A stretch of DNA of 55,542 nt from assembly GCA_947177635.1 (NCBI GenBank), contig CAMWVQ010000009.1, forward strand, positions 1-55,542, given 5' to 3'. Below are positions 36,760 to 54,326 of the stretch, piece by piece. Each line of letters opens with the position of its first letter. Position 1 is the first letter of the stretch. The position numbers and the translations under genes were made by a program. The notes below the pieces were generated by a model. The model did not search any database. It was not told where the DNA came from and was given only the letters and a program-made list of their open reading frames with translations. Source of the DNA: an uncultured Porphyromonadaceae bacterium. GTDB taxonomy: Bacteria > Bacteroidota > Bacteroidia > Bacteroidales > Muribaculaceae.

Positions 36760-37980
36760 TTATTGCGCGGATTTATTGAACGGTATCGAGCAGCTCAACC
36801 AAAATAAGGGGAACATTATTGCACCGGCAAACATCAGCCATCCTTCAGCGATACCGTTGACAAGGAAGAATGTCAGGAGGGATATGACCAATATTGCCAG
36901 TTGTGAGTGTCTTATGCGGTATATCTTTGTTGTTATGGTATAGATGAACCAACAGAACAGGACAGCGCCGATGATGCCGCCATAGCTTAGCAGCGACAAC
37001 CAGGAGGAGCCGGGTTCGAGATAGGTGAGTTTCCCGGGCTCGTTTTTCCAGGATGGCCTGGGGAATTCGTTTGCATAGCCAATCCCTGATAGAGGAGAGG
37101 AGGATATCTCCTGACATCTGGTTGTCCAGATTTCCTGACGTGAATATATCAGGGAGTTATGATTGTTGCCAATGGAATTTTTATGGATTATTACTTGGAA
37201 GGCCATAGGAGACAGTGCGAATAGTGACAGTATGGCGACAACTGCCATAATTTTTGAGCGAGTATGTGACAGGCGTTTTTTCAGGCTCTCCCTCATAAGA
37301 ATGAGTTCAATTGTTATGGCGGCAATCATAGCGGCTGTTGCAATGCGCGAGCCTGCCGCAACGCATGTGGTGACACTTATAAAGGAAGCCACAGTCCAGT
37401 ATGCGGCGTATTTGGGGTTAGTGGCAGTCAGTGATTTGTATAGGGATATGACTGATATCAATCCGGCTATTGGAGACAATGTCATACCTTTATCAAAAAC
37501 TCCTTTGAATCCGTAATAAAAGAATGTGGTGTCTGACATCTCTCGACCGGTGGCTATACAATAAATCCATATGACGAAGGATATGCCCACCATTGTAGCC
37601 AAGAGCCAGAAAGCAGTCTTGCCAATCCACACTTTTGCCAATCGCAGCCAATGGGAAGTCAGTAGAGGGGAGAATGTGAGCATACCGATAGTGAACGCGG
37701 TGAAGCGTGACGTGCGAAGTCGTAATTCCGGTTCTGGGTGTATTACCAGTGTGAGCCCATAATAAACGACCAGGCTCAAGAGAGGGATGCAGACTGTGGT
37801 CCGTTTTTCAACACACGCAACCAATACCATCATAGACAAGATGGAAATGACTGGCAACGGTATGTCAATAAGATATGAACACCTCACACAGATGGCTGCG
37901 GAGGTAATTATTGAAAGCGTCTGTATCAGCTTTCGTCGTATATGCCGTATGGCGTACAATGCCATTTCAGGCTGAGGCAT
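36760..37980 (-). CDS. O-antigen polymerase/ligase-like membrane protein (Wzy-like)
   Basis: Encodes 406 residues with about 10-12 hydrophobic helices and one larger periplasmic loop near residues 260-320. That loop has SLIYSRQEIWTTRCQEI, SSPLSGIGYANEF and EPGSSWLSLLSYGGIIGA, the pattern of the O-antigen ligase/polymerase (Wzy/WaaL) family. It would polymerise repeat units or transfer the chain. The start overlaps the end of the flippase gene by 14 bp; ATG 37962 is an alternative. A second Wzy-like gene lies at 41711-43108. Confidence 0.85.
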   Translation of the reverse strand: MPQPEMALYAIRHIRRKLIQTLSIITSAAICVRCSYLIDIPLPVISILSMMVLVACVEKRTTVCIPLLSLVVYYGLTLVIHPEPELRLRTSRFTAFTIGMLTFSPLLTSHWLRLAKVWIGKTAFWLLATMVGISFVIWIYCIATGREMSDTTFFYYGFKGVFDKGMTLSPIAGLISVISLYKSLTATNPKYAAYWTVASFISVTTCVAAGSRIATAAMIAAITIELILMRESLKKRLSHTRSKIMAVVAILSLFALSPMAFQVIIHKNSIGNNHNSLIYSRQEIWTTRCQEISSSPLSGIGYANEFPRPSWKNEPGKLTYLEPGSSWLSLLSYGGIIGAVLFCWFIYTITTKIYRIRHSQLAILVISLLTFFLVNGIAEGWLMFAGAIMFPLFWLSCSIPFNKSAQ

Positions 37981-39433
37981 CGCGCAGTGAGTGTCGTGAC
38001 TTGAACAGATTGAACACAGAAACGCAAACGCGTGTCTGGAAAATCATAGATAGGCCGCCGTATGTCAACAAGCCAATGGTGATTCCCAACACTACCTGTA
38101 TCCATTCGCCTACTGCTACAAGCTGAACCGAGAAAACAGCCGTGGCCATCAGCGTGGCCATTATCAATGTCGGCAGTATCAGGCGGCATTGTTTCAGGAG
38201 ACCAAGGTTTATACGCCGCCCCGCCATACTGGCATTTATAACAAAGCTCAGTGCGGCACTTGCCAACAGGCCTATGCAGACAGCTGACAGTCCGAATGGT
38301 ATCGTGACAGCAAGCAAAGAAAGTCCTATCACGATGTTGACAATTTGGAGTTTAAGGTAAAGTCCCCCTTTGCCATAGATTTCCAGAATCATAAAATTTA
38401 TGGAGTTCAACGGGAAAAAGAGGAAATACAGACAAAGGATTCTCAAAAGCCTTGCGGTGTAGAGCCATTGATGACCAATGAGAGCGGTTGTCAGAGGAAG
38501 CGCCAATGCGGCTATCCCCATCATAAGAGGGGCTATGAAAAACAGTGACAGCCTGATATATTCTGAAACCATACCGCATAATTTATGCGGGTCGTTCTGG
38601 TAGCCGCAGAACATCGGGAAGGCAGCCCGGTTGACGATGCGCGTCAGATTCTCGGATGATATGCTGCCGAGCTGACGCGCATTTGTGTAACATCCCAGGG
38701 CATATGCCGAGAAGACTTTGCCTATGGCGAGGATATAAAAACTGTTGTAAAGGCTCTCGACGACTTTGCTAATGAGCAGTCTGCTCCCGAAGCCATACAA
38801 TCGTCGGAATGCGTATGTCGAAAACAGCAACATGGGACGCCATTCCGTGACCAACCATAGGGTAACAGCGGTGGAAATCTGGTTGGTTAGTTGTAGGCAC
38901 ACTATCGCCCATGCTCCATATCCGTTGTATGCCATATATATACCCACAAATCCAGATGACAATGCTCCTACGAAAGTGGATTTAGCCTGGGTCTTGAAAT
39001 CGAGGCGGGATGTCAATACAGCCCGGTGGACGACCAAAGAGGATTGTATGGGAATGCACAGGGCCATGACCCGAAGCAATCCTGTGAGCCTCGGCTCGTC
39101 ATAAAACAGAGCCACATAGGGGGCTGTGACATACAGCAACAAGTAAAGAATAGCACCGCCTGCGATGTTGACGTAAAAAGAGGTTGACAGGTCGGCCTCG
39201 TCGCGGTCAAGCTTGCGTATGATGGCTTGTGATAAACCTCCCTCGGCGATGAGTTGCGAAATGACGATAAAAAAAGCCAGCATACCCACCAGTCCATAGT
39301 CTGTAGGGGAGAGAACCCTTGCCATAAACACGAAGGCAATGAACTGCATTCCCTGAACAGCAAATCGCTCGAACGCGCTCCAGGAAATACCGGCCTTAAG
39401 CGTTTTGTAATTGTCCTGTGGTTTGTCTGTCAT
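37967..39433 (-). CDS. Wzx-like polysaccharide flippase (first)
   Basis: Encodes 488 residues from ATG 39433, with about 12-14 membrane helices of the polysaccharide-transporter (PST) branch of the MOP superfamily: LKAGISWSAFERFAVQGMQF at the N-terminus and FRRLYGFGSRLLISKVVESL in the middle. It flips lipid-linked repeat units across the inner membrane. Its ATG overlaps the preceding stop codon as ATGA, and a longer in-frame start at 39478 would lie inside the neighbouring gene. Similar in length and plan to the second flippase at 52896. Confidence 0.92.
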   Translation of the reverse strand: MTDKPQDNYKTLKAGISWSAFERFAVQGMQFIAFVFMARVLSPTDYGLVGMLAFFIVISQLIAEGGLSQAIIRKLDRDEADLSTSFYVNIAGGAILYLLLYVTAPYVALFYDEPRLTGLLRVMALCIPIQSSLVVHRAVLTSRLDFKTQAKSTFVGALSSGFVGIYMAYNGYGAWAIVCLQLTNQISTAVTLWLVTEWRPMLLFSTYAFRRLYGFGSRLLISKVVESLYNSFYILAIGKVFSAYALGCYTNARQLGSISSENLTRIVNRAAFPMFCGYQNDPHKLCGMVSEYIRLSLFFIAPLMMGIAALALPLTTALIGHQWLYTARLLRILCLYFLFFPLNSINFMILEIYGKGGLYLKLQIVNIVIGLSLLAVTIPFGLSAVCIGLLASAALSFVINASMAGRRINLGLLKQCRLILPTLIMATLMATAVFSVQLVAVGEWIQVVLGITIGLLTYGGLSMIFQTRVCVSVFNLFKSRHSLRDASA

Positions 39434-40569
39434 AACAGGTGGAGGAAGTCCGGCGTTTCTCCTCCTTTCAGAATCCAACTATAAAGCATTTCCATTTTTT
39501 CACCAAGCGATGCTACTGAGTAGCGCTGTGAAATCAGTTTGCGCCCATTTGTTCCCATATCATTCAGTGACTTTTCACCGATGTGATAGCTTTCCAATAT
39601 AGTCTTGTTTATTTCTTCCTGGGAATTCTCAATCCACCATCCGCACTTGTTTTCAGGTAGTTCCTGCCAAGGCATTCCTTTGGATGCGATTACAGGCACA
39701 CCGCGTACAAGAGCTTCGGTCACGATATTACCGAAGTTCTCGAAATCACTGGGTACCGCAAGCACAGACAAGGACTTGATTGCGTCGTCTTTTTCTTTGC
39801 CCGACAGGAAACCTGTCATCTCGACGTTTGTGAGTCCCAGACGAGTGATTTCGGACTTCAGAAATTCCGTATATCCGGCATCTCCACCTCCTATGATTCT
39901 CAGTCTGGCATTGGATGGAAGCTGCTCTTTAAGGTCATACATAGCACGTATAAGACGCTCAACCCTTTTGCGGGGATGCAGACGTCCAAGGTAGCCTACT
40001 GTGAATATGGGTTTGTCGGGAATCGGAATGTCAATGACTCCGGTTGTCTCTATAGGATTGGGAATTACAGCTACAGGTGTTTTGAACCCCAGATTCCGGA
40101 AATGCTCCATTTCTTCCTCACATGTACATTGCACTGCGGCTGCATTCTTGAGTATATCGCGTTGGTATAATGCCAAAGACAGTCGTTTGATTAACGCATT
40201 GTGGGCAAGCGCCTCAGGATAGAGCATTCCACGTAGAGTCACCACATAGGGTTTTCCTATGTTTTTGGCATAAGAGGAAACAGTACGGCCGTGCAGCATC
40301 CATATGCCTTGAATATGATACAGGTCAATGCCCTTGATGTCACATAGCAATTGTTTTAATCCGGGCACGTATGCGAGAGTCCCAAATTTTGAGTGGCGGC
40401 TGTATATCGGGTTTGCGTCATTGTCAATCAGACGGTCTCCGTCAGGTAATGGTGCTGTAATTGCAGTTACATTGTGACCCCGGTCTCTGAGACCTTTTAT
40501 AGTCAGCCAGGTGCTTAATGCCGGTCCTCCGGCCCACACATCAAGCGCGCCGGAATGAAGAATGTTCAT
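39430..40569 (-). CDS. Glycosyltransferase family 4
   Basis: Encodes 379 residues from ATG 40569. The GT-B fold is evident from NILHSGALDVWAGGPALSTW and the acceptor-side FVVTLRGMLYPEAL-like stretch (actual reading PYVVTLRGMLYPEAL). The C-terminal donor domain has VGYLGRLHPRKRVERLIRAM and PSDFENFGNIVTEALVRGVPVIAS (E-x7-E motif). Retaining transferase using a nucleotide sugar. ATGA overlaps on both sides couple it to the neighbouring transferase and flippase. Confidence 0.93.
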   Translation of the reverse strand: MNILHSGALDVWAGGPALSTWLTIKGLRDRGHNVTAITAPLPDGDRLIDNDANPIYSRHSKFGTLAYVPGLKQLLCDIKGIDLYHIQGIWMLHGRTVSSYAKNIGKPYVVTLRGMLYPEALAHNALIKRLSLALYQRDILKNAAAVQCTCEEEMEHFRNLGFKTPVAVIPNPIETTGVIDIPIPDKPIFTVGYLGRLHPRKRVERLIRAMYDLKEQLPSNARLRIIGGGDAGYTEFLKSEITRLGLTNVEMTGFLSGKEKDDAIKSLSVLAVPSDFENFGNIVTEALVRGVPVIASKGMPWQELPENKCGWWIENSQEEINKTILESYHIGEKSLNDMGTNGRKLISQRYSVASLGEKMEMLYSWILKGGETPDFLHLL

Positions 40570-41714
40570 CTTTGACAAAGTGGGTGTTTCTTCAGGATTT
40601 CTGATATGTGTTTGTGGAGTATGACAGCTTGCCGGTCACAGCTAATGGCGTTCTTGTATTCAAGATTGTTCTGCTTCGCTGCGGCAAGATATTCTGGATT
40701 CTTCAGAAGAGGGATTAGACATTCGGCCAAAGCGTTTGAATCGCCTGACGGGAAAATCGCACCGCCATTGGAGTCCTTTATAAGAGATGCCGCTCCGAGG
40801 CCATCACTGATGACTACGGCTTGTCCTCGTTGTATGGCTTCATTTATCCGTATGCCCCAAGGTTCCACCCGTCCTGGAGCGACGAGGATATCAATCTGAG
40901 GGATGAGCTTGCCGTATTCGGCAGCCGTCAGTACCCCTTCAAATCTGACAAGGTTAGAGAGTCCTTGTCTTTGAGTCATTGTTTTCAGCCTGGTCTCCAT
41001 TTGTCCTTTCCCTGTTATATGGCATATGAAATTATCAATGCCCTGATCTGAGAGTTTCTTGAAGGCTTTTATCAGGACATCCACGCCTTTATAATGCTCG
41101 AGCAGTCCGGGACAAAGCAGATGAATCAGCCCATCCGCTGATTTGACATAATGAACCTCTTTCCCTTCATCAGTGAAGTATCCGTAGGGATATATGTCGT
41201 CAGGCTTGAATCCTAATCTTTGGAATTGTTTGAAATCGCGTTGCGAGTTTCCGGAGAGACACATTACTCCGAGGCTTTTGGACGCGATTGAGCGAGTATG
41301 ACGGGGTAGGAGCAAGCGGATGTAAGCGTTTTTGGCGAGTTTTCGCATTCCATTTTCAAGGTTGAAATACGCTTCAGACATATTGCAGAATGCCACATTA
41401 TTTGAAATGGCATAATGTATGAGCTCTTTCATTCTTGCCGGATGCGTGATGCCGTTGAATATATGAAGCCTGTCAGGATATTTGTCAATCAGTGATTTGC
41501 TCGTTGTGGCCCAATCCTCGTCTGAGATGATGATATGATTGGGAAACAGTTTGCCTTTATCCGCCCATCCCATTGCCTTTCTTGAGGCACTTAGGCAGCC
41601 TGTCACAACAATACTTTCCTGATCACACGTCTCACAATAAGATTTTAGGACATTGATCATGCCGGCACAAGGAATGTTCCACCAAAAAACGGTCTTTTTA
41701 GATAGTGGTCTCAT
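40566..41714 (-). CDS. Glycosyltransferase family 4
   Basis: Encodes 382 residues. The donor domain shows LLCPGLLEHYKGVDVLIKAF, CHITGKGQMETRLK, DILVAPGRVEPWGIRINEAI and the retaining-GT4 Glu pair. The N-terminal domain is divergent (FWWNIPCAGMINVL). Coupled by ATGA overlaps to the polymerase gene before it and the transferase gene after it. Confidence 0.92.
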   Translation of the reverse strand: MRPLSKKTVFWWNIPCAGMINVLKSYCETCDQESIVVTGCLSASRKAMGWADKGKLFPNHIIISDEDWATTSKSLIDKYPDRLHIFNGITHPARMKELIHYAISNNVAFCNMSEAYFNLENGMRKLAKNAYIRLLLPRHTRSIASKSLGVMCLSGNSQRDFKQFQRLGFKPDDIYPYGYFTDEGKEVHYVKSADGLIHLLCPGLLEHYKGVDVLIKAFKKLSDQGIDNFICHITGKGQMETRLKTMTQRQGLSNLVRFEGVLTAAEYGKLIPQIDILVAPGRVEPWGIRINEAIQRGQAVVISDGLGAASLIKDSNGGAIFPSGDSNALAECLIPLLKNPEYLAAAKQNNLEYKNAISCDRQAVILHKHISEILKKHPLCQR

Positions 41715-43108
41715 ATTAATACTGGCCGCTTCAAATTTTTATCAGAAAAATCGTAAAGCCCATAGAGCGCGGGCATAACATATATGAGAGGACTTACAAC
41801 AGATCCAAACATCATCGAACCGATAACAGACGATAGTGCCGCTACTCCAAAAGCGAGTCCATATGGTTGTCTTTTCTTGTATGAACGAGTAGTTACCTTT
41901 ACCACAATCGTAATCAGTATCACATACAAGGCTACGCCGAGCACTCCGAAGTCACAGAGAGTAATCACGAGGCCTGATTGCATAGGTATTAGGGCGTTGC
42001 CGATTGTCTGACCTGGAATATGAAACGTGTATTGCGCGGTACCGTAACCCAAAATACGGGACTCGGGATCGGGATCCCCTATAAGATGGTCGAGCACGAT
42101 TCGTTCCTGGCGGTCATCTTCCATTTCCTCTTGTGCGCGTCCAAACGAACGCTCATACAACAAATCCATGAAACCTGAGTTTTCTGTCTGCTCTTGCCCG
42201 GGGATTGTATCTATCTTTTGCCATTCAGACCATAGGCTAATGGCCAACACGGCCACAATTCCAATAGGCAACAACTTACCCACCAAATTTTTCAGAGGGA
42301 GGAACCATAAGATGAGTGGCACTGCTATGGCGAATGTAATCAATGCCGCAGAAGAGAAAGTCTGTATCAGCACAAAGATTCCAGCACATAATGCCCCAAG
42401 ATGGTATTTAGGATTGTTGTACCGGTATATCTTCTGGCTGAACATCACAAGGGATGCGAGAAGATATGGCAATACAAGAAAGGCCAGATTCTTAGGTTCT
42501 CCGCCCACGCCATATATTCGTTGTATAGCCATACCTCCTGAATGAAACGCAGCTTCGGCGTTTACGGTACCATCCTGACGGAGAATGGGCATAAACTCAA
42601 TGCCGGCTTTGAGACATAAGAAATGTATAAGGCCAAAACCTATGGCAACTTCAACAGCAAGGCAATATTTGGGATAAAGTTTTGCGACAAATCCTTTTGG
42701 CAACAATGCTCCAAAGAATAACAATGAAGTTGTAGTGAGGTATGTGTAGTTGGTATTGATTATTCGTGAAATTTTACTGATATGGCGTGCATATTCCTGA
42801 GGGGTGATGAATGCCAGTAAATCGCCTGCCAAAAGAGCTATAAACAATAGCGTGACAAATGGCTTTACGGCATTATTGACAGGTGTTTTCCTTACAGAAC
42901 CACTAAGGAACAGTATACTGATAACCATTCCAAGAGCTATCACTTTTGTAGGGAACCATATGGTGAAAGTGAATTGATAACATACCGCAAATGTCATTCC
43001 CCAGAAATATAATACCAGAAGGTTGAAAAATTTTCGGTTTATGACGAAGTATACGGTCAATATCAAAAATATATAGAACCCAATTTTTTGAAGAAGAAAC
43101 CAAATCAT
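41711..43108 (-). CDS. Wzy-like polysaccharide polymerase (second)
   Basis: Encodes 465 residues from ATG 43108, with about 11 membrane helices and a polar loop around residues 310-370 (QERIVLDHLIGDPDPESRILGYGTAQ) ahead of the last helices. No close motif to known ligases beyond topology, as is normal for Wzy. An upstream in-frame extension to 43348 runs inside the preceding glycosyltransferase gene and lacks hydrophobic character, so it is not used. Its presence together with the gene at 36760 gives two polymerase candidates in one locus. Confidence 0.82.
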   Translation of the reverse strand: MIWFLLQKIGFYIFLILTVYFVINRKFFNLLVLYFWGMTFAVCYQFTFTIWFPTKVIALGMVISILFLSGSVRKTPVNNAVKPFVTLLFIALLAGDLLAFITPQEYARHISKISRIINTNYTYLTTTSLLFFGALLPKGFVAKLYPKYCLAVEVAIGFGLIHFLCLKAGIEFMPILRQDGTVNAEAAFHSGGMAIQRIYGVGGEPKNLAFLVLPYLLASLVMFSQKIYRYNNPKYHLGALCAGIFVLIQTFSSAALITFAIAVPLILWFLPLKNLVGKLLPIGIVAVLAISLWSEWQKIDTIPGQEQTENSGFMDLLYERSFGRAQEEMEDDRQERIVLDHLIGDPDPESRILGYGTAQYTFHIPGQTIGNALIPMQSGLVITLCDFGVLGVALYVILITIVVKVTTRSYKKRQPYGLAFGVAALSSVIGSMMFGSVVSPLIYVMPALYGLYDFSDKNLKRPVLI

Positions 43109-43134
43109 ACAATTCGAGATGTCTTTGGGTAGGC

Positions 43135-44256
43135 TTAATGTTGGGATATCAGTTCGCGTATCAGTGATATATATTTTTTTGCTGCGTTCTGATATGTGAA
43201 ATTTGAAGCATAATCCATCAGCACCTCCTTTTGAGATGGAAGCACGTCTAATTGAAGTATGGCTTTCGTCATATCCTCGGTGTCGGTTGGTGAGAACAAA
43301 ATTGCATATCCATTTGCAATTTCGGGGAGAGAAGTCACATTCGAGCATGCAACGTTGATTCCTTGAGAGAATGCTTCTATTACCGGAAGCCCAAAACCTT
43401 CATATAATGAAGGAAATATCAGGCCTCGGCTATTGGCCACTATGTTACGAAGAATGTCGTCATCTTGGAATGGAATATTATGAATGCCGTTGTGAAACTC
43501 AGTTTTGATATCTGACATATATTCCTCTACCCCTCCAATAAGTAGCAAGTCCGGCAAATCATTACGCAAACTTTGAGCTTTGCGGTAAGCTGTGATGAGC
43601 CGCGCAATGTTTTTTCGCCTCGAAATCAATCCCCACCATACAAAATATGGGCGTTCGGGAATCAAATTGCGGATAGATAAATCAATCTCCTCTGTTTTTT
43701 TCGTGCGTAACCACGCGGGATTAATGCCATTATGGACTACTTTAACAGGAGTTGTAAGGTCTGGGAAAAAATGCGAAATATCATTTTTAGTAAATCCAGA
43801 GATAGCTATGACAGTTGACAATTTAGGTAATTGACGACGCAGGCTATATCGAGTCCAATATTTGAAGAATGTAGAATACTTTCCCGTGCTAAGTCCCTTT
43901 AATGTAGATAGGTCAGCGAGAGAGCATATTTGTGGACCATTGAAATTTGATAGGAATTCAATATGCCCGGGATTAACGAATATGTCGACGTCATCATCAA
44001 GTTTTACATAATTCAAGCCTAACATCTGTTTTAAAACAACAACCTTATGCTTATTATGATAGAATCTTACGCTTACATTTGGCAGGCTGTTGATTTCATT
44101 GTAAAAATCGTTAAGCTGAGAGGGGAAAGGCCGTCTGCTGTAATATAACTGGAATTTTATCTCCGGATTATCCTTGATTAGTTCAAGAGTCATTCCTCTT
44201 ACGGGGAAGCCACTTGTGAAAGACGCGAAACAATTTGCAGAAATTGCAATTTTCAT
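43135..44256 (-). CDS. Glycosyltransferase family 4
   Basis: Encodes 373 residues from ATG 44256. The donor domain has YFVWWGLISRRKNIARLITAY and FPSLYEGFGLPVIEAFSQGINVACSN (E-x7-E), as in mannosyl- and rhamnosyltransferases of the WbaZ/MtfB type. The N-terminal half is an AT-rich divergent acceptor domain. An in-frame extension upstream to 44367 lacks conserved features. Confidence 0.92.
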   Translation of the reverse strand: MKIAISANCFASFTSGFPVRGMTLELIKDNPEIKFQLYYSRRPFPSQLNDFYNEINSLPNVSVRFYHNKHKVVVLKQMLGLNYVKLDDDVDIFVNPGHIEFLSNFNGPQICSLADLSTLKGLSTGKYSTFFKYWTRYSLRRQLPKLSTVIAISGFTKNDISHFFPDLTTPVKVVHNGINPAWLRTKKTEEIDLSIRNLIPERPYFVWWGLISRRKNIARLITAYRKAQSLRNDLPDLLLIGGVEEYMSDIKTEFHNGIHNIPFQDDDILRNIVANSRGLIFPSLYEGFGLPVIEAFSQGINVACSNVTSLPEIANGYAILFSPTDTEDMTKAILQLDVLPSQKEVLMDYASNFTYQNAAKKYISLIRELISQH

Positions 44257-48245: not shown

Positions 48246-49538
48246 TTAGAAACGGTAATCTTGAAGAACCTCTATCTGATCCACGTCGAAAACTGGAATA
48301 TGACACTCGTTGGCGACTTCCTGACGTTCTTTGAACATATTATCTATGAAAATGCTGCCGGCAGCACCCTTTTGCTTGATGACCTTCGCTTTACTGTCTG
48401 TCGGAGATATGTGTAATATTTCAGAAAACAGACCTTGTGAAATGTGCAGTTTGTCAAGAGTTTGAAGTATGTTGTCAGCATGTTTTGTTAACAAAAAGAC
48501 CTTCTTGGATTGGTTCGCACATTGGTAAATGTATCTCATTACAGACAGGTTGATTTTTCCTCTCAGTGTGACTGTGTCATCGAAGTCCAGATACACTTTG
48601 TCGTACTTGTAATTTATCTGATAGCAGTTGACAAGCCCTCTGTCGAGCGTGACATTGTAAGGATTTGGAAGAATTTCTGTCTCATATCCAAGAGCTGCAT
48701 AAACGGTTAACAAGGGAAGATTCACTCCCTGTGCACGGCTCAGGCACATTGTGCCGGCACAACGTGCGGAGATTTCCATCAATCTAAGATTGTTGTTTTT
48801 GTCCTCCTTAAGCTGGAAATACCAGAGTCCTGTGAATTTAAGCCGGGAATTTATCTCCTCTGCAATTGAATCAATGATAGGATTGGAGCCTATTACACTT
48901 CCTCGGTCTGTTACTCCAGCGCGCAATCGTTCTCTCGTCCTGGCCGACACGAATCGTAGTTTCCCGTTCTTGTCAGTAAAACAGTCAACCGTGAATTCAC
49001 GTCCAGGTAAGTATTCGGTAATCAGGAAATCCTGGGCGTCAATTAACTCCAGTTGTTTTATGTCCGTGATGGTCTGCGCGCCCTTTGCTCCTTGACCTTC
49101 GTCCGGTTTTGCGAACAACGGAAAAAAAGGTGACTCATTGCCGTGGTATCGTTTAGGCACAAAATCTTTGTCTGCGAACAATTCCCAAGTCTTGATTTTG
49201 CTTCTCGTGATTTCAGCTGTATAAATGTCAGGCACAGTAAGACGACAATGAATATTCCCGGCCATTCCAGTCAAATGTTTCACAACAGTGTCATGTGTCG
49301 GAAATATCAGATCGATATTGTTCTGATCGATATATTCATTCAGTTTATTCAGGAAATCGTTGTCAGATATTGAGGGCATATCCGAGTAATATCTCTCAAA
49401 GACGAATTTGCCGTGCCTTTCAGTTGAGGATACTCCAAACACTTCAATATTGACGCAAGTCGCTAATGCGGCATGAATTTCCGCGGCATTATTCCCTTCT
49501 GCGGGGAAAACCATTACCCGTATTTTTCCGTTTTGCAT
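48246..49538 (-). CDS. ATP-grasp ligase fused to a HAD-like domain
   Basis: Encodes 430 residues. Residues about 110-300 form an ATP-grasp domain: PLFAKPDEGQGAKG (ATP Lys and glycine loop), FLITEYLPGREFTVDCF, and the Mg-binding RLMEISARCAGT (Glu255, Arg259). Residues about 314-430 form a small HAD-type domain with all four motifs: nucleophile DFDDT (Asp318/Asp320/Thr322), Thr351 in LLTKH, Lys in DSKAKVIKQ (382-389), and FIDN (Asp399). The first half makes acyl-phosphate-dependent C-N bonds in known relatives, while the second half would be a phosphatase. It ends a four-gene block of aminotransferase-fold and ATP-grasp genes; 6 bp separate it from the previous gene. Substrates unknown. Confidence 0.85.
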   Translation of the reverse strand: MQNGKIRVMVFPAEGNNAAEIHAALATCVNIEVFGVSSTERHGKFVFERYYSDMPSISDNDFLNKLNEYIDQNNIDLIFPTHDTVVKHLTGMAGNIHCRLTVPDIYTAEITRSKIKTWELFADKDFVPKRYHGNESPFFPLFAKPDEGQGAKGAQTITDIKQLELIDAQDFLITEYLPGREFTVDCFTDKNGKLRFVSARTRERLRAGVTDRGSVIGSNPIIDSIAEEINSRLKFTGLWYFQLKEDKNNNLRLMEISARCAGTMCLSRAQGVNLPLLTVYAALGYETEILPNPYNVTLDRGLVNCYQINYKYDKVYLDFDDTVTLRGKINLSVMRYIYQCANQSKKVFLLTKHADNILQTLDKLHISQGLFSEILHISPTDSKAKVIKQKGAAGSIFIDNMFKERQEVANECHIPVFDVDQIEVLQDYRF

Positions 49539-49544
49539 AGTTCT

Positions 49545-50507
49545 TTAGTTTACTTGATATTGCCTGACGAGTCGCGCTATTCGTTTCATCTCTGCGATGC
49601 CATAACGCTGATCTATCGGGAGAGGCAATATGGAGTTTGCCAGTTGGTATGCCGATGAACTCTGAGTATTGTCTTCAAGCACGTTCGGCCAATACGTGGC
49701 CACATAAATAGATTCTGATATCAACGTCTGCCTCAGACCGGCATATGAGGTTCGGAATGGATATACCATCGGACATTCAAGTGTATCCATCCGCGGAATT
49801 GATAACTCATTTAAATCACCTAATTCCGTATGCAATATCTTGAAGTTTTGACGGCGAATATACCTGAGTTTTTCCCAATCGATCGACTTCAACAATCGTT
49901 CTGTCAATACCGACATTTTTTTTATCGGTTCACCTCCTAATGCTGTGCTGTTTTCTCTGAAATCCTTATATCCTTCTGACGGCCCCAGGTCGATTCGTTT
50001 TAACAAATGATTCATTCTGTTCCAGGATTGACCAGTAGGGGCATCAATTGGCATTGGCGGAATCACAATCCCTCCGTCAGCAACTCCGACAAATTTCCGT
50101 GGGCTGTAAAAGACTTGGGAATTGTTAGAAGGTGTATTGAAAAATGCTTGGGAGTTGTCCACAATAAGATGTCCTTGGTAATGTAAGGAAAGACAATCCA
50201 CATACTGGTCTTTGATACCAAAATAATTGGTGTACAGTAAATATTGCTTTTCAGACAGATGAGGAAGATAGGTTAATTCCAAATCGTCATTGACATCATA
50301 GAATGTGTATGGCGTGTTTGTCCTTTCAAATGGTTCAAACACGGTCTCGCAAGTGAATCGAGGGACAAGCACTTCGGCTGCTTTGGGAAGAGACGCCAAT
50401 ATGACTTCCAGGGCATTCCGGCCGGAATTCACTAATAAGCCATCTGAATGTGGGAATGTGCCTGCCGATGATAGCTCCAGCTCAAAGTAACCTCCGATTG
50501 CTGTCAT
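49545..50507 (-). CDS. DegT-like PLP aminotransferase-fold protein, divergent
   Basis: Encodes 320 residues, shorter than usual for DegT enzymes (about 360-400). PLP signature residues are present: Asp117 in LIVDNSQAFF and the Schiff-base Lys138 in YSPRKFVGVADGG. An N-terminal LLVNSGRNALEVILASL matches the PLP phosphate-binding segment. The acceptor part is divergent, so the sugar or acid substrate is unclear. Start and stop are coupled to the ATP-grasp gene by an ATGA overlap. Confidence 0.8.
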   Translation of the reverse strand: MTAIGGYFELELSSAGTFPHSDGLLVNSGRNALEVILASLPKAAEVLVPRFTCETVFEPFERTNTPYTFYDVNDDLELTYLPHLSEKQYLLYTNYFGIKDQYVDCLSLHYQGHLIVDNSQAFFNTPSNNSQVFYSPRKFVGVADGGIVIPPMPIDAPTGQSWNRMNHLLKRIDLGPSEGYKDFRENSTALGGEPIKKMSVLTERLLKSIDWEKLRYIRRQNFKILHTELGDLNELSIPRMDTLECPMVYPFRTSYAGLRQTLISESIYVATYWPNVLEDNTQSSSAYQLANSILPLPIDQRYGIAEMKRIARLVRQYQVN

Positions 50508-51748
50508 ATGACCATCGAGCGAATATGGTTGCTTATGTTGTCAGCCATAGAAAACATTTTGTTTTCATCATCGAAACGAAGGAACACAATCCCGATGGCT
50601 TTGCCTGCCCCGTCGAAACGCTCAATGTTGTCACCGGCTTTTTTGTACAAGACCTCGCGGTAGACATGCTGCTTTATATCATCGGAATACCAGGCTCCAT
50701 TGAAAATGCCGTCCTGGTCTGAATGGAGGACGGATGTCATATAGCACGCGGAAGGTTCGGTAGGGTTGAGTCTAGGATCATTTCCCATCGCCGCAAGCAC
50801 ATTCGCGCGTGGAAGGTCCACACCATAAGCATCCGAGAGCTGAATAGGAATCATGTTGCCACCGGCCCGTGGGCCGAGTTCTAGGAAATGCACATTATCC
50901 TCCTTGTCGAGGATTATCTCAATGTTCAATTCTCCGAAACGGATACCAAGCGCGTCAATGAGCTTTTGAAGTTCCAAGTGGACGATTTTTGTTTGCCGTT
51001 CATTCAGTCCGGATGGCTTTTTTTCCCCTATAGGGATTAGACTGCGGCCGTTGTCGCCGCGGGTGCAGGACATTTCTCCGTAAAGTATTATCTTGCCGTC
51101 CCATACGAAGATGTCCCCACCGATGACTTCTGGGAATCCGAACTCGATGAATTCCTCCACAATCAGTATCTTGTTGCGTGAGTATTGGTTTGCGTGTGAA
51201 ATCGCTTCCGCCAATCCGTCAACGCTGTAAAGTTTGGTGACACCTTTGGAACCGGATGAATCCGTCGGCTTCAGGATGATAGGGAATGAGAATGTGGAGA
51301 TGTCGGTTTTCAATACGTCAATGTCCACATCCGGACTGAAGGTATTGTTTCTGGGGCACGCAAATCCGTTCTCTTTCAGAAATTGGCGGAAACGGTGTTT
51401 GACACCAAGTATTTCCACAGAAGAGACAGGATTGGTTGGTAACCCGAGCCGTTCTGCCACGATGGCGGCTGGGAGAGCCGCAGGATCAGACGCATATGCG
51501 AGTATGCCGCCGACTTTCTCAGACGAAGCCACTTTGTAGACAGCCTCTACATCCGTGGTCGAAATAGGATAGAACTTGTCTGCGATATGCTGACCCGGAT
51601 TGTCTGGAAGATAATCACAGACAACCGTGTAATACCCGGCATCTTTCGCGGCCTGTATCGCTACCATCTGCTGGGCTGACCCTCCCAGCATCAGGATTTT
51701 TTGGGGGGTAATCCCGTTGGATTCTTTGTGAAAGAGGTTGTCTGACAT
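50504..51748 (-). CDS. ATP-grasp carboxylate-amine ligase-like protein
   Basis: Encodes 414 residues. N-terminal Rossmann-like domain (KILMLGGSAQQMVAIQAAKDAG), then an ATP-grasp domain: FPIILKPTDSSGSKGVT (Lys160), KILIVEEFIEF, and the Mg site HFLELGPRAGGN (Glu290, Arg294). It resembles carbamoyl-phosphate-synthase-type/BtrJ-like ligases that join an amine to a carboxylate through an acyl phosphate. Three bp downstream of the DegT aminotransferase gene, ATGA overlap with the next gene. Confidence 0.88.
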   Translation of the reverse strand: MSDNLFHKESNGITPQKILMLGGSAQQMVAIQAAKDAGYYTVVCDYLPDNPGQHIADKFYPISTTDVEAVYKVASSEKVGGILAYASDPAALPAAIVAERLGLPTNPVSSVEILGVKHRFRQFLKENGFACPRNNTFSPDVDIDVLKTDISTFSFPIILKPTDSSGSKGVTKLYSVDGLAEAISHANQYSRNKILIVEEFIEFGFPEVIGGDIFVWDGKIILYGEMSCTRGDNGRSLIPIGEKKPSGLNERQTKIVHLELQKLIDALGIRFGELNIEIILDKEDNVHFLELGPRAGGNMIPIQLSDAYGVDLPRANVLAAMGNDPRLNPTEPSACYMTSVLHSDQDGIFNGAWYSDDIKQHVYREVLYKKAGDNIERFDGAGKAIGIVFLRFDDENKMFSMADNISNHIRSMVI

Positions 51749-51751
51749 AAG

Positions 51752-52858
51752 TTATTTGTTTTTAACCAGATCAATCACCTTGAGTATGTCCTCCTGAGAC
51801 AGGGCGTGGTGCATAGGGAGGCATATCACGGAGTCGGCCATCTTATGCGCCTGTGGCAGATTTTCCTTGGCAGCCGAGGGTAGGCTCCTGTATGTGGAGA
51901 ACTCCGAGATGAGTGGGTAGAAGTAGCGGCGGCCGAGGACTCCGGCTTCCTTCATCTTGAAATACAGCTCGTCACGGGTCATCCCGTACTTATCCGCGTC
52001 GATGAAGAGGGGGAAGTAGGAGTAGTTGTGGCGCACTCCGGGCATGTCGTCGAAGAAGCTCAGGCCCGGCACACCCCGCAGGGCCTCGCGGTAGGCCACG
52101 GCCACCTTGCGGCGCGCGGCTATCGCGTCGTCGACCTGGCGCAGGTTCAGCAGGCCGTAGGCGGCGCGCATCTCGTCGACCTTCGAGTTGATGCCCGGGG
52201 CCACGACCTCGGTCTCCCCGGCGAATCCGAAGTTCTTGAGGTAGTCGATGCGCTGCTTGGTCTTGGCGTCGTGCATCACGAGCGCGCCCCCCTCGATGGT
52301 GTTGTAGACCTTCGTGGCGTGGAACGACAGCGTCGACATGTCGCCGGCCTCCAGTATGCTCCTGCCGTCGACCTCCACGCCGAACGCGTGCGCCGCGTCA
52401 TAGATGACCTTCAGCCCGTACTTGTCGGCGATGGCCTGTATGGCCTCCGTGTCGCAGGGCTTGCCGTAGACGTGCACCGGCATTATGGCGGTGGTCTTGG
52501 GGGTTATGGCCGCCTCTATGCGGGCGGGGTCGAGGTTTCCGGTGGCGGGGTCGATGTCGACGAACACCGGCTTTATGCCGTTCCACCACAGCGAGTGGGT
52601 GGTGGCCACGAAGCTGTAAGGGGTCGTTATCACCTCTCCGGTGATCCTCAGCGCCTGCAAGGCTGTGATCAGGGGCAGCGTGCCGTTCGTGAACAGGCTC
52701 ACATACGGGACCTTCAGGTATTCGGCCAGGGCGGCCTCGAGCCTCTTGTGGAAGGAGCCGTTGTTGGTTATCCACTTGCTGTCCCAAATCTCCTTGAGCA
52801 GCGCGTGGAACTCCTCAAGGTCAGGAAGCAGCGGAGATGTCACAGTGATGTTCTCCAT
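51752..52858 (-). CDS. DegT/DnrJ/EryC1/StrS-family sugar aminotransferase
   Basis: Encodes 368 residues, standard length. PLP residues: Asp154 in VIYDAAHAFG and Lys183 in SFHATKVYNTIEGG. Converts a 4-keto (or 3-keto) nucleotide sugar to the amino sugar, most likely a dTDP- or UDP-linked 4-amino-4,6-dideoxyhexose, judging from relatives that carry the FHATK motif (VioA/FdtB type, inference). Base composition is far higher in GC than neighbouring genes (46 of 60 bases G or C at 52081-52140), pointing to a different origin. Confidence 0.9.
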   Translation of the reverse strand: MENITVTSPLLPDLEEFHALLKEIWDSKWITNNGSFHKRLEAALAEYLKVPYVSLFTNGTLPLITALQALRITGEVITTPYSFVATTHSLWWNGIKPVFVDIDPATGNLDPARIEAAITPKTTAIMPVHVYGKPCDTEAIQAIADKYGLKVIYDAAHAFGVEVDGRSILEAGDMSTLSFHATKVYNTIEGGALVMHDAKTKQRIDYLKNFGFAGETEVVAPGINSKVDEMRAAYGLLNLRQVDDAIAARRKVAVAYREALRGVPGLSFFDDMPGVRHNYSYFPLFIDADKYGMTRDELYFKMKEAGVLGRRYFYPLISEFSTYRSLPSAAKENLPQAHKMADSVICLPMHHALSQEDILKVIDLVKNK

Positions 52859-52895: not shown

Positions 52896-54326
52896 TTATT
52901 TTCTGATGTTCCTTATTTCTTCGATTTCCGGGAAGCGGAATATCCAGGCCCCCCCGAGGTAGACGACCGCCCCGACGGCGGTGGAGCAGGCGAGCGACAA
53001 TGCGCCGTTGCCCAAGGCGTTGGCCGTCAGTCTTGCAGCTACGAACATCGCTCCTGCCAGCAGCAGTGTCGGAAGCAGGTCGCGCAACTGCGCGATGATG
53101 CTCATCCCGAGGAACTTCCCGTTGTAATGGGTATTCCACACCAGCGACAGCAAGGAGCTGCAGACGCTACCCCAGCACATCGCCTCCAGCCCCATGGGGA
53201 TGGTGACGCAGAGTATGGCGACGCCCTGTATCTTCTTTATGACCTCCAGCCTGAGAAACAGGTCGCTGCGCCCCTTGACAATGAGGTAGTTGAGGTTTAT
53301 GGCGTGGATGGGATACCACATCATAGAGAAGACAATGATTGACAGCAGAGATGCCGCGTATATCCATCGAACTGTGTAAAGCACGTTGATTAAGGGATAT
53401 GCCAACGCTCCTAATCCGAGGCAAAGAGGGAATATAACGAACGCCGCAAGCCTTATAGTGCGGCGGTAGCCGTGCTTTAGAGCCTCATTGTCGTCTTGTA
53501 ACTTGCATAGAGTGGGATAGGTCACAGATTGTAGGATGCCAGTGGGAGTTGTGGCTGTCAGCTGTGTAAGACTGGACGCCCGGTTATAAAATGCGAGATC
53601 GGCGGATTTGTAAACTTTACCGATTGTTATTGCGTATATGTTGCTATATATGGTGTCTAATAATCTTGACCCGAGTATTTTTGATCCGAAACCGAAAAAC
53701 TCCCGAAAACTTTCTTTTGAGAACACGAAAGATGGACGCCATTTTACTTTGAACCATACAATCATAGATGTGATTGTGGTAGATGCGAGACTCTGCAGTA
53801 CGAGCGCCCAGACTTTGAAATCAAGATACGCAAACACAATGCCTATGCTTCCAGAAATAATGGCCCCACAAAGATTAAATTTTGTCAGCGCCTTGAAATT
53901 CATCTCTGCGTTGAGCAATGTGCGATGTACCCCAACCAGTGAGCCAATTACGAGCCTAATTGACGTGACTCTAAGAATAGGTGTTAATTCTGCCATCCCA
54001 TAAAAATCTGCCACTAATGGTGCACATATAAATAGAATGCAGTAACAGATGATTGCAACTATGATGTTGAACCAATACACGGTACTGCAGTCCTCTTGTG
54101 TGCGGTCATTTTTACGGATTAGTGCAGTTGAGAATCCGGAGTCTATAAAAACTTCAGCAATGGCGGTAAACACAACAAGCATCGCAATCATACCGAATTG
54201 GTCTGGCATAATAAGTCTTGCGAGGATAATTGAGACCACCAAGGTAATGACTTGGTTGGCTCCTTGCTCAGCTATGCGCCATAATACACCGTTGACCGCT
54301 TTGCGCTTTAAAGATTGTTCTGCCAT
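52896..54326 (-). CDS. Wzx-like polysaccharide flippase (second)
   Basis: Encodes 476 residues with about 12-14 membrane helices of the MOP/PST family. N-terminal motif KRKAVNGVLWRIAEQGANQVITL; central FREFFGFGSKILGSRLLDTIYSNIYAITIGKVY, near identical in plan to the first flippase. The 5' part is AT-rich (23 of 60 G or C at 53821-53880) while the 3' part is GC-rich (41 of 60 at 52921-52980), so the gene looks mosaic. A promoter-like box at 54364-54371 lies upstream. Confidence 0.92.
   Translation of the reverse strand: MAEQSLKRKAVNGVLWRIAEQGANQVITLVVSIILARLIMPDQFGMIAMLVVFTAIAEVFIDSGFSTALIRKNDRTQEDCSTVYWFNIIVAIICYCILFICAPLVADFYGMAELTPILRVTSIRLVIGSLVGVHRTLLNAEMNFKALTKFNLCGAIISGSIGIVFAYLDFKVWALVLQSLASTTITSMIVWFKVKWRPSFVFSKESFREFFGFGSKILGSRLLDTIYSNIYAITIGKVYKSADLAFYNRASSLTQLTATTPTGILQSVTYPTLCKLQDDNEALKHGYRRTIRLAAFVIFPLCLGLGALAYPLINVLYTVRWIYAASLLSIIVFSMMWYPIHAINLNYLIVKGRSDLFLRLEVIKKIQGVAILCVTIPMGLEAMCWGSVCSSLLSLVWNTHYNGKFLGMSIIAQLRDLLPTLLLAGAMFVAARLTANALGNGALSLACSTAVGAVVYLGGAWIFRFPEIEEIRNIRK

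What the first reader, a model, noticed from the sequence alone, without database searches (positions are those of the whole stretch)
48246..52858. Four-gene module of two PLP aminotransferase-fold and two ATP-grasp proteins inside a capsule locus
In transcription order: DegT-type aminotransferase, ATP-grasp ligase, short DegT-like PLP protein, ATP-grasp-HAD fusion. The spacings are 3 bp, a 4-bp ATGA overlap and 6 bp, so the four proteins should be made together. Seen directly: all PLP and ATP-grasp key residues are intact. Known: aminotransferases put amino groups on nucleotide sugars, and ATP-grasp ligases form amide bonds through acyl phosphates. Inference: the module makes an amino sugar and attaches a carboxylate such as an amino acid to it, or builds an amino-acid derivative that decorates the polysaccharide. 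I know no named pathway with exactly this gene set.
Basis: partly seen in the sequence, partly recalled or inferred. Interest (0 to 1): 0.75.

Follow-up and report, generated by a model that had tools for sequence, protein, structure and literature searches.

The report
Capsule module attaching amino acids
These four neighbouring genes look like a kit that makes an amino sugar for the bacterial coat and hangs an amino acid on it; one of them belongs to an unnamed enzyme family that may flip that amino acid into its mirror image, a step for which I found no described enzyme.

Summary
The four ORFs are real, on the minus strand, with the spacings stated. AT1 (51752-52858) is 55.6% identical to E. 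coli O7 VioA, the enzyme for dTDP-Qui4N. AG1 is an ATP-grasp ligase. The short PLP protein (PLP2) matches no Pfam, NCBIfam or PHROGs family, but is a distant DegT relative that keeps the PLP lysine and aspartate in 42 of 42 stand-alone relatives. The fourth is an ATP-grasp/HAD-like fusion.

In 39 of 41 PLP2 loci an ATP-grasp, WbqC or FemAB gene lies within three genes; these unrelated enzymes replace one another. Fresh genomes: 5 of 5 close PLP2 genes, 0 of 2 distant ones. E. coli O-antigen loci give a small natural experiment: acetyl, VioA without WbqC or PLP2; N-acetylglycyl, plus WbqC; D-alanyl (O123), plus WbqC and PLP2; D-alanyl on legionaminic acid (O161), FemAB and a distant PLP2.

Best reading: AT1 makes the amino sugar, AG1 joins an amino acid to it, PLP2 makes that residue D, the fusion caps it. 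The first two steps are well supported; PLP2 as D-former is correlative (about 0.5); the cap is a guess. Nothing was tested biochemically.

The parts
51752..52858 (-). AT1: VioA-like DegT sugar 4-aminotransferase (predicted product dTDP-4-amino-4,6-dideoxyglucose)
   Evidence: Pfam DegT 4.5e-99; 55.6% identity to E. coli O7 VioA, 52-53% to the aminotransferases of O121 and O123; RmlA and RmlB in the same genome on contig C39
50504..51748 (-). AG1: ATP-grasp carboxylate-amine ligase, predicted to join an amino acid to the sugar amine
   Evidence: ATP-grasp_4 over cut-off; phmmer to 4dim 3.6e-22 and to L-amino acid ligase BL00235 2.2e-11; place taken by WbqC or FemAB in other PLP2 loci
49545..50507 (-). 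PLP2: unnamed short DegT-superfamily protein with K138 and D117 at the PLP positions; proposed former of the D-aminoacyl residue
   Evidence: no Pfam, NCBIfam, PHROGs or PDB sequence match for this protein; hhalign to AT1 family 98.3%; homologues in E. coli O123 and, distantly, O161
48246..49538 (-). AGHAD: ATP-grasp (ATPgrasp_Ter type) fused to a HAD-like domain; proposed second acylation (cap) with dephosphorylation
   Evidence: ATPgrasp_Ter 5.8e-22; HAD-type motif residues identical in 4 of 4 members: window, L004, L006, L077
47277..48218 (-). GT2 glycosyltransferase directly after the module; its counterpart follows AGHAD in L004
   Evidence: Glycos_transf_2 5.7e-13; 40% identity over 300 columns to L004:10305-11300
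52896..54326 (-). Wzx-type flippase upstream of AT1
   Evidence: Polysacc_synt_3 1.7e-92

Best explanation
The module makes an N-aminoacylated 4-amino-6-deoxyhexose for the capsule. (1) AT1 puts an amino group on C4 of dTDP-4-keto-6-deoxyglucose, giving dTDP-Qui4N (about 0.85). (2) AG1 activates an amino acid with ATP, probably as an acyl phosphate, and joins it by an amide bond to the sugar amine (about 0.7). (3) PLP2, a shrunken relative of sugar aminotransferases, takes the free alpha-amine of the attached residue as an external aldimine and leaves it in the D configuration, so that the sugar carries a D-aminoacyl group such as D-alanyl (about 0.5). (4) AGHAD caps that alpha-amine with a further acyl group, perhaps a phosphorylated acid that its HAD half then dephosphorylates; in some other loci a GNAT acetyltransferase is found instead (about 0.35). 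(5) The neighbouring GT2 and Wzx use the sugar. Gene content, residues and neighbourhoods are shown; every catalytic step is inferred.
For: AT1 is 55.6% identical to VioA of E. coli O7 and RmlA/RmlB are in the genome. PLP2 keeps both PLP residues in 42 of 42. In 39 of 41 PLP2 loci an amide-former lies within three genes: 14 ATP-grasp, 16 WbqC, 7 FemAB, 2 mixed (the Cupriavidus WbqC). On the PLP2 tree the amide-former type changes 8 times by parsimony, and well-supported branches alone force several changes, so PLP2 stays while the ligase is swapped. Fresh sample of 360 genomes: 5 of 5 new close PLP2 genes have WbqC directly upstream. The ligase does not need PLP2: 19 of the 28 best-scoring WbqC genes have none in about 1.5 kb of flank. 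E. coli: O7 (vioA, vioB) and O116 (published acetyl) regions lack WbqC and PLP2; O121 (N-acetylglycyl) has WbqC, no PLP2; O123 (N-3-hydroxybutyryl-D-alanyl) has WbqC and PLP2; O161 (D-alanyl on Leg) has FemAB and a distant PLP2; the Leg-type regions of O108 and NT1F31 have neither (structures from passages; for O7, O108 and NT1F31 I saw gene annotation only). FemAB enzymes use aminoacyl-tRNA (recalled), which carries L residues, so a D-alanyl product in O161 asks for a later inversion. One ATP-grasp partner (L071) has an L-amino acid ligase C-terminal domain over cut-off.
Against: The D-amino-acid link rests on two positive E. coli serotypes and a handful of negatives. The O161 protein is a distant relative: 88.8 bits against the first profile, close to L171 and L172 (77.0 and 71.4 bits), which have none of the three amide-formers within three genes. 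L132 has PLP2 with no ligase nearby; L067's contig ends in PLP2. The FemAB calls for L078 and L133 are below Pfam's cut-offs, and those of L026 and L069 were not checked by Pfam (one search took 6 of 8). The neighbour labels come from profiles built on sequences of these same loci. In the fresh test L168, L169 and L170 are alike operons, so the five are about three lineages; L170's WbqC is partly masked and its PLP2 is split over two frames. Free D-alanine is available in these bacteria (recalled), so an inverting enzyme is not strictly needed. No second catalytic base was identified, and no structure could be predicted. AG1 itself shows no LAL_C2 domain at E up to 0.01.
Confidence: 0.5

Rival explanations
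1. PLP2 makes the free D-amino acid (as a racemase or D-aminotransferase), and the ligase then attaches it; nothing happens on the sugar.
For: Same genes, same D-product; PLP enzymes of other folds are known to make free D-amino acids (recalled). AG1 also matches the D-Ala-D-Ala ligase profile over its cut-off (26.6 bits, cut-off 24).
Against: D-Ala is already made by the cell (recalled). PLP2 is most like nucleotide-sugar aminotransferases. In O161, L025 and L070 the partner matches FemAB or its acetyltransferase-like domain over cut-off, and FemAB needs aminoacyl-tRNA (recalled).
Confidence: 0.2
2. PLP2 is an aminotransferase that makes an amino donor such as an amino alcohol phosphate; AGHAD joins it to a carboxyl group and its HAD half removes the phosphate, as Cj1438C and Cj1435 do in the Campylobacter jejuni HS:2 capsule.
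For: In HS:2 an ATP-grasp domain joins serinol-P or ethanolamine-P to GlcA and a HAD phosphatase acts next (PMC11800379, passages); AGHAD combines the same two activities by motif.
Against: PLP2 occurs without AGHAD in 37 of 41 loci (an aghad-labelled gene in L027 is four genes off and was not counted). 29 of the 41 loci have a DegT-type amine-maker within the five listed genes on each side, which points to an amine acceptor. The C. jejuni ligase is TupA-like; AGHAD is ATPgrasp_Ter-like. Uronic-acid genes were not searched for.
Confidence: 0.12
3. PLP2 is a second sugar aminotransferase, and the module makes a diamino sugar with two N-acyl groups.
For: DegT homology and both PLP residues.
Against: PLP2 relatives sit in NeuB/LegC-type loci, in VioA-type loci and in loci with a deacetylase-like gene, which use different sugars. 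For E. coli O123 none of the other sugars listed in PMC10609480 seems to need a second aminotransferase (inference).
Confidence: 0.1
4. PLP2 is a non-catalytic partner that binds the aminoacyl-sugar for the ligase or the glycosyltransferase.
For: In L006 a second PLP2 copy is fused to a GT2 and has arginine at the PLP lysine.
Against: Lysine and aspartate are kept in 42 of 42 stand-alone relatives.
Confidence: 0.08

Closest known systems
E. coli O123/O186 O-antigen locus (Qui4N with N-[(S)-3-hydroxybutyryl]-D-alanyl)
   Same: VioA-like aminotransferase, amide-former and PLP2 in the same order
   Different: amide-former is WbqC, not ATP-grasp; GNAT and MaoC genes instead of AGHAD; PLP2 35% identical and annotated only as hypothetical protein
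E. coli O121 / S. dysenteriae 7 O-antigen locus (Qui4N with N-acetylglycyl)
   Same: VioA-like aminotransferase plus an amide-former
   Different: WbqC instead of ATP-grasp; no PLP2 in the fetched region
E. coli O161 O-antigen locus (legionaminic acid with D-alanyl)
   Same: amine-maker, amide-former candidate and a distant PLP2 relative
   Different: LegC and FemAB-type genes; two genes lie between FemAB and PLP2, and PLP2 scores only 88.8 bits against the profile
Campylobacter jejuni HS:2 serinol/ethanolamine amide (Cj1438C, Cj1435)
   Same: ATP-grasp amide formation followed by HAD dephosphorylation
   Different: amide on a uronic acid, TupA-like ligase fused to a GT2, HAD separate
L-amino acid ligases (BL00235, BacD)
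   Same: ATP-grasp enzymes joining amino acids; AG1 matches BL00235 at 2.2e-11 and BacD at 4.5e-6
   Different: they make free dipeptides (recalled); AG1 lies in a capsule operon and lacks a detected LAL_C2 domain

Membership tests
VioA / dTDP-Qui4N aminotransferase (AT1) | DegT family over Pfam cut-off | tested here: met
   332.5 bits, cut-off 19.8
VioA / dTDP-Qui4N aminotransferase (AT1) | high identity to a named VioA | tested here: met
   55.6% over 367 aa to E. coli O7 VioA as annotated in IAI39
VioA / dTDP-Qui4N aminotransferase (AT1) | activity on dTDP-4-keto-6-deoxyglucose | not testable with these tools
   RmlA and RmlB are in the genome; no assay
DesI (TIGR04427) | score over the equivalog cut-off | tested here: not met
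   311.3 of 650 bits; not filed as DesI
DegT aminotransferases (PLP2) | Pfam PF01041 over cut-off | tested here: not met
   no Pfam match for window PLP2, nor for O123, O161 or L021 PLP2; a distant relative, L027:8176-9252, does match (28 bits, cut-off 19.8)
DegT aminotransferases (PLP2) | superfamily homology with PLP lysine and aspartate | tested here: met
   hhalign 98.3%, E 2.1e-14; D117 and K138 in 42 of 42
DegT aminotransferases (PLP2) | transaminase activity | not testable with these tools
   no assay
L-amino acid ligases (AG1) | ATP-grasp domain | tested here: met
   ATP-grasp_4 28.1 bits, cut-off 27
L-amino acid ligases (AG1) | LAL C-terminal domain | tested here: inconclusive
   not seen in AG1 at E up to 0.01; over cut-off in L071's ligase; under cut-off in 5 and not seen in 5 of 10 other ATP-grasp neighbours
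ATPgrasp_Ter with HAD (AGHAD) | ATPgrasp_Ter over cut-off | tested here: met
   78.3 bits, cut-off 29.1
ATPgrasp_Ter with HAD (AGHAD) | HAD domain | tested here: inconclusive
   motif residues identical in 4 of 4 (motif definitions recalled), no Pfam HAD match
ATPgrasp_Ter with HAD (AGHAD) | tellurite (Ter) operon context | tested here: not met
   no Ter-type Pfam match, apart from the ATPgrasp_Ter model itself, among the 20 proteins scanned between 33.7 and 55.5 kb, the four included; the rest of the genome was not looked at
N-aminoacyl-Qui4N O-antigen pathway | VioA-like gene next to an amide-former | tested here: met
N-aminoacyl-Qui4N O-antigen pathway | aminoacyl amino sugar in the polysaccharide | not testable with these tools
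   no structure is at hand for this organism
C. jejuni HS:2 serinol amide pathway | TupA-like ATP-grasp amidoligase | tested here: not met
   no TupA match for AG1 or AGHAD in Pfam at E up to 0.01

The most novel reading that the evidence does not exclude
PLP2 is the first of an unnamed family of PLP enzymes that invert an amino acid after it has been joined to a nucleotide-activated (or lipid-linked) amino sugar: a sugar-linked aminoacyl epimerase derived from sugar aminotransferases, working behind any of three unrelated amide-formers (ATP-grasp, WbqC, FemAB) and responsible for D-amino acids on O-antigen and capsule amino sugars. It would also make WbqC, so far uncharacterised, an amide-forming enzyme.
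Probability: 0.33. Interest if true: 0.85.

Novelty: new variant of a known kind. Interest (0 to 1): 0.62.

Why it matters
D-amino acids amide-linked to amino sugars have been reported in O-antigens (E. coli O123 and O161, Providencia, Pseudoalteromonas; passages), but I found no enzyme described for setting that configuration, nor an assigned function for WbqC, which one paper calls functionally uncharacterized (PMC5532660, passage; paper searches in a partial, open-licence library). If PLP2 does it, gene content alone would predict D- versus L- or glycyl decoration in capsules and O-antigens, an exposed feature, and one enzyme would serve three different ligases. It gives a sharp test with a handful of purified proteins.

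Tried and rejected
Rejected: WbqC as a relative of pantoate ligase (PanC), which would have explained its exchange with ATP-grasp: hhalign probability 0.3%, E 0.23. WbqC has no PDB sequence match either as a single sequence (E up to 1) or as a profile (E up to 10), so its chemistry stays inferred from context. Rejected: the four genes as one inherited unit (exact order in 1 of the 40 other loci). Set aside: a glycyl-to-seryl role for PLP2, an idea written in note 2 before the O123 structure was read as D-alanyl.

Led nowhere: the Proteus O-antigen paper (no relevant term); the A. baumannii K-locus paper (passages: the D-alanine there is an amide of a uronic acid); PMC8987622 (passages); five papers that name WbqC (passages), none of which gives it a tested function in the passages seen; the other seven of the twelve papers with that string look unrelated by title and were not opened. 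I did not locate an E. coli O114 (L-seryl) locus, so the best L-control is missing. Whole-genome search of the E. coli records was not possible, so absence of PLP2 in O121, O7 and the others is shown for the fetched O-antigen regions only; every PLP2-profile hit in the seven regions is the VioA-type gene itself.

Rows dropped or not looked at: of the 36 matching genomes, 20 entered the 41-locus table, G346 was dropped (stops inside), and the 15 weaker ones (best E above 1e-20) were not used; two of these, G220 (in fragments, L106) and G436 (distant, L111), turned up next to WbqC. Of the 10 new matches, three (G1061, G1242, G991, about 130 residues aligned) were set aside without looking at their neighbours. 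One of the two near-identical Cupriavidus records was used.
Full report
Observation. The four ORFs lie on the minus strand exactly where stated, with gaps of 3 bp, a 4-bp overlap and 6 bp. They sit in a polysaccharide locus with a flippase upstream (52896-54326) and glycosyltransferases downstream. A pattern scan finds one terminator-like site on the coding strand in the stretch, inside AG1, within a total near the shuffled expectation (8 found, mean 5.2, sd 2.5). AT1 is a DegT aminotransferase; AG1 and AGHAD are ATP-grasp proteins; PLP2 matches no family in Pfam or NCBIfam and no PDB sequence. A profile of 14 PLP2 relatives finds QdtB, a sugar aminotransferase, at 5.9e-4, and an alignment of 42 relatives matches the AT1 family over 294 columns at 98.3% probability, with D117 and K138 on AT1's aspartate and lysine; both are kept in 42 of 42, R30 in 41, C53 in 38. 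The 42 are different genes at 98% clustering; with one gene per locus the counts are 40, 40, 39 and 37 of 40. AGHAD keeps HAD-type motif residues in 4 of 4 members, but Pfam gives no HAD match.

What AT1 does. AT1 is 55.6% identical to VioA of E. coli O7 and 52-53% to the aminotransferases of O121 and O123. The genome encodes RmlB and RmlA over the curated cut-offs, on another contig, C39 (RmlB with its two pieces in one frame). So dTDP-Qui4N is the likely product. The window's contig ends at 55542, so the rest of the locus is not seen.

PLP2 relatives and their neighbours. One scan of genome contigs gave 6 relatives, in Bacteroidota, Pseudomonadota and Spirochaetota. In genome samples, the own genome included each time, 11 of 198 relatives (E up to 1e-3), 36 of 393 of the order (E up to 1e-3, many weak) and 5 of 395 of the phylum (E up to 1e-15) had a match. 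I compared 41 loci (window, L002-L007, L018-L027, L059-L072, L074, L076-L079, L131-L135), with labels from profiles built on sequences of these loci. An ATP-grasp, WbqC or FemAB gene lies within three genes of PLP2 in 39 of 41: ATP-grasp alone 14, WbqC alone 16, FemAB alone 7, WbqC with ATP-grasp 1, WbqC with FemAB 1. The Cupriavidus WbqC (L077) was hidden by ORF picking and comes. L007's ATP-grasp is in two pieces. Of the eight FemAB-labelled genes six were checked by Pfam: four match FemAB or Acetyltransf_6 over cut-off (L079, L025, L070, L135), two (L078, L133) only below it. The exceptions are L132 (a gene that reads like a radical SAM protein upstream) and L067 (the contig ends in PLP2). 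AT1-AG1-PLP2 is contiguous in the window and five other loci; AT1-WbqC-PLP2 in at least nine. In four loci (L007, L024, L068, L069) no DegT-labelled gene is near but a PIG-L-like deacetylase gene is (named by eye), which would also expose a sugar amine (inference). L006, L021, L023, L027, L070, L072, L132 and L134 show neither label within the five listed genes on each side; L021 and L134 begin near a contig end, L006 has an AT1-type gene further off, and L023 has a DegT-like neighbour.

Ligase swapping. On a tree of 40 PLP2 sequences (the truncated L067 left out; the two mixed loci labelled WbqC) the amide-former type needs 8 changes by parsimony, against a shuffled mean of 18.1; starred branches alone force at least 4 changes for WbqC, 4 for ATP-grasp and 2 for FemAB. 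It is inherited for a while and then replaced. The dependence is one-sided: of the 28 best-scoring WbqC genes (E at most 4.3e-75, among 59 genomes with a match) 22 have an AT1-type gene in the fetched flank, and 19 have no PLP2 within about 1.5 kb. PLP2 therefore looks like a step added to an existing aminoacylation.

Fresh test. I wrote the question down after the search and before looking at any neighbourhood, and then looked at the new hits among 360 genomes of the class of Pseudothauera. Five close PLP2 genes were found besides the known one, all with WbqC directly upstream (5 of 5); L168-L170 are alike operons, and in L170 WbqC is partly masked and PLP2 lies in two frames. Two distant ones (L171, L172) have none of the three amide-formers within three genes (0 of 2). 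The association holds for the close family and is not shown for its outer fringe.

Mechanism. The common thread is: an amine is made on a sugar, an amide-former attaches an amino acid, and PLP2 is present when the residue is D. A FemAB enzyme draws on aminoacyl-tRNA (recalled), so in O161 the D configuration should arise after transfer. An ATP-grasp partner in L071 carries an L-amino acid ligase domain over cut-off, and five of ten other ATP-grasp neighbours show it below cut-off (L004, L018, L020, L059, L065). PLP2's kinship to enzymes that bind a nucleotide sugar's amine as an aldimine makes action on the sugar-linked residue plausible. The rivals (free D-amino acid supply, an amino-alcohol route as in C. 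jejuni, a second sugar amination, a binding protein) are listed with tests.

AGHAD. It is within three listed genes of PLP2 in four loci (window, L004, L006, L077), none of which has a GNAT-labelled gene among the five genes on either side. GNAT-labelled genes are near PLP2 in L002, L003, L018, L021, L025, L062, L074, L134 and L135 (the label's profile was built from eight of these nine), and in O121 and O123 an annotated GNAT fits the published N-cap. That AGHAD does the capping here with a phosphorylated donor is a guess, built on the C. jejuni precedent in which a HAD enzyme removes the phosphate after ATP-grasp amide formation (PMC11800379, passages).

Novelty. N-aminoacylated Qui4N is known chemistry, so the module is a new variant of a known kind. 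PLP2 as a family is unnamed in the libraries searched (the two NCBIfam rows are stray matches far under cut-off). I found no paper that assigns it or WbqC a function (searches; WbqC passages), in a library that lacks most subscription journals; the original O123 and O161 papers were not read.

Noticed in passing
window 51752-52858 versus 48246-51748: AT1 has 61% G+C while PLP2 and AGHAD have 43% (AG1 49%), and AT1 is 73-82% identical to its counterparts in L003, L004, L018 and L020 where PLP2 is only 41-47%: AT1 looks separately exchanged between loci.
   Followed up: partly
L006:11013-13097 (Pseudothauera): A GT2 glycosyltransferase is fused to a second PLP2-type domain with arginine at the PLP lysine, in the same gene group as an intact PLP2 and AGHAD; it may read the modified sugar.
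   Followed up: partly
L083:98-1096 (E. coli O161): The annotated 263-aa hypothetical protein starts too late: the frame is open for 332 codons and the extra N-terminus holds the family's glycine and NSGR motifs.
   Followed up: yes
L132:5146-7191: PLP2 next to a gene that reads like a radical SAM protein, with no amide-former nearby: a possible different use of PLP2.
   Followed up: no
L091, L095, L096, L103: VioA-type gene and WbqC with a gene resembling acyl-activating (AMP-binding) enzymes downstream instead of PLP2, perhaps another acyl source (by eye only).
   Followed up: no
window 37967-39478 and 52896-54326: Two Wzx-type flippase genes in one stretch, which may mean two fused or overlapping polysaccharide loci.
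   Followed up: no
window 41711-43348: A 545-aa ORF inside the polysaccharide locus without any Pfam match at E up to 0.01.
   Followed up: no
L068, L069, L024, L007: PLP2 with a PIG-L-like deacetylase and a sugar-phosphate transferase-like gene rather than a DegT amine-maker, pointing to a HexNAc-derived acceptor (names by eye).
   Followed up: partly
Dickeya zeae WH1, between fliA and fliC (paper PMC9650423): A passage reports a WbqC family protein, a DegT aminotransferase and two hypothetical proteins in a flagellar island: the same kind of module may decorate flagellin.
   Followed up: no
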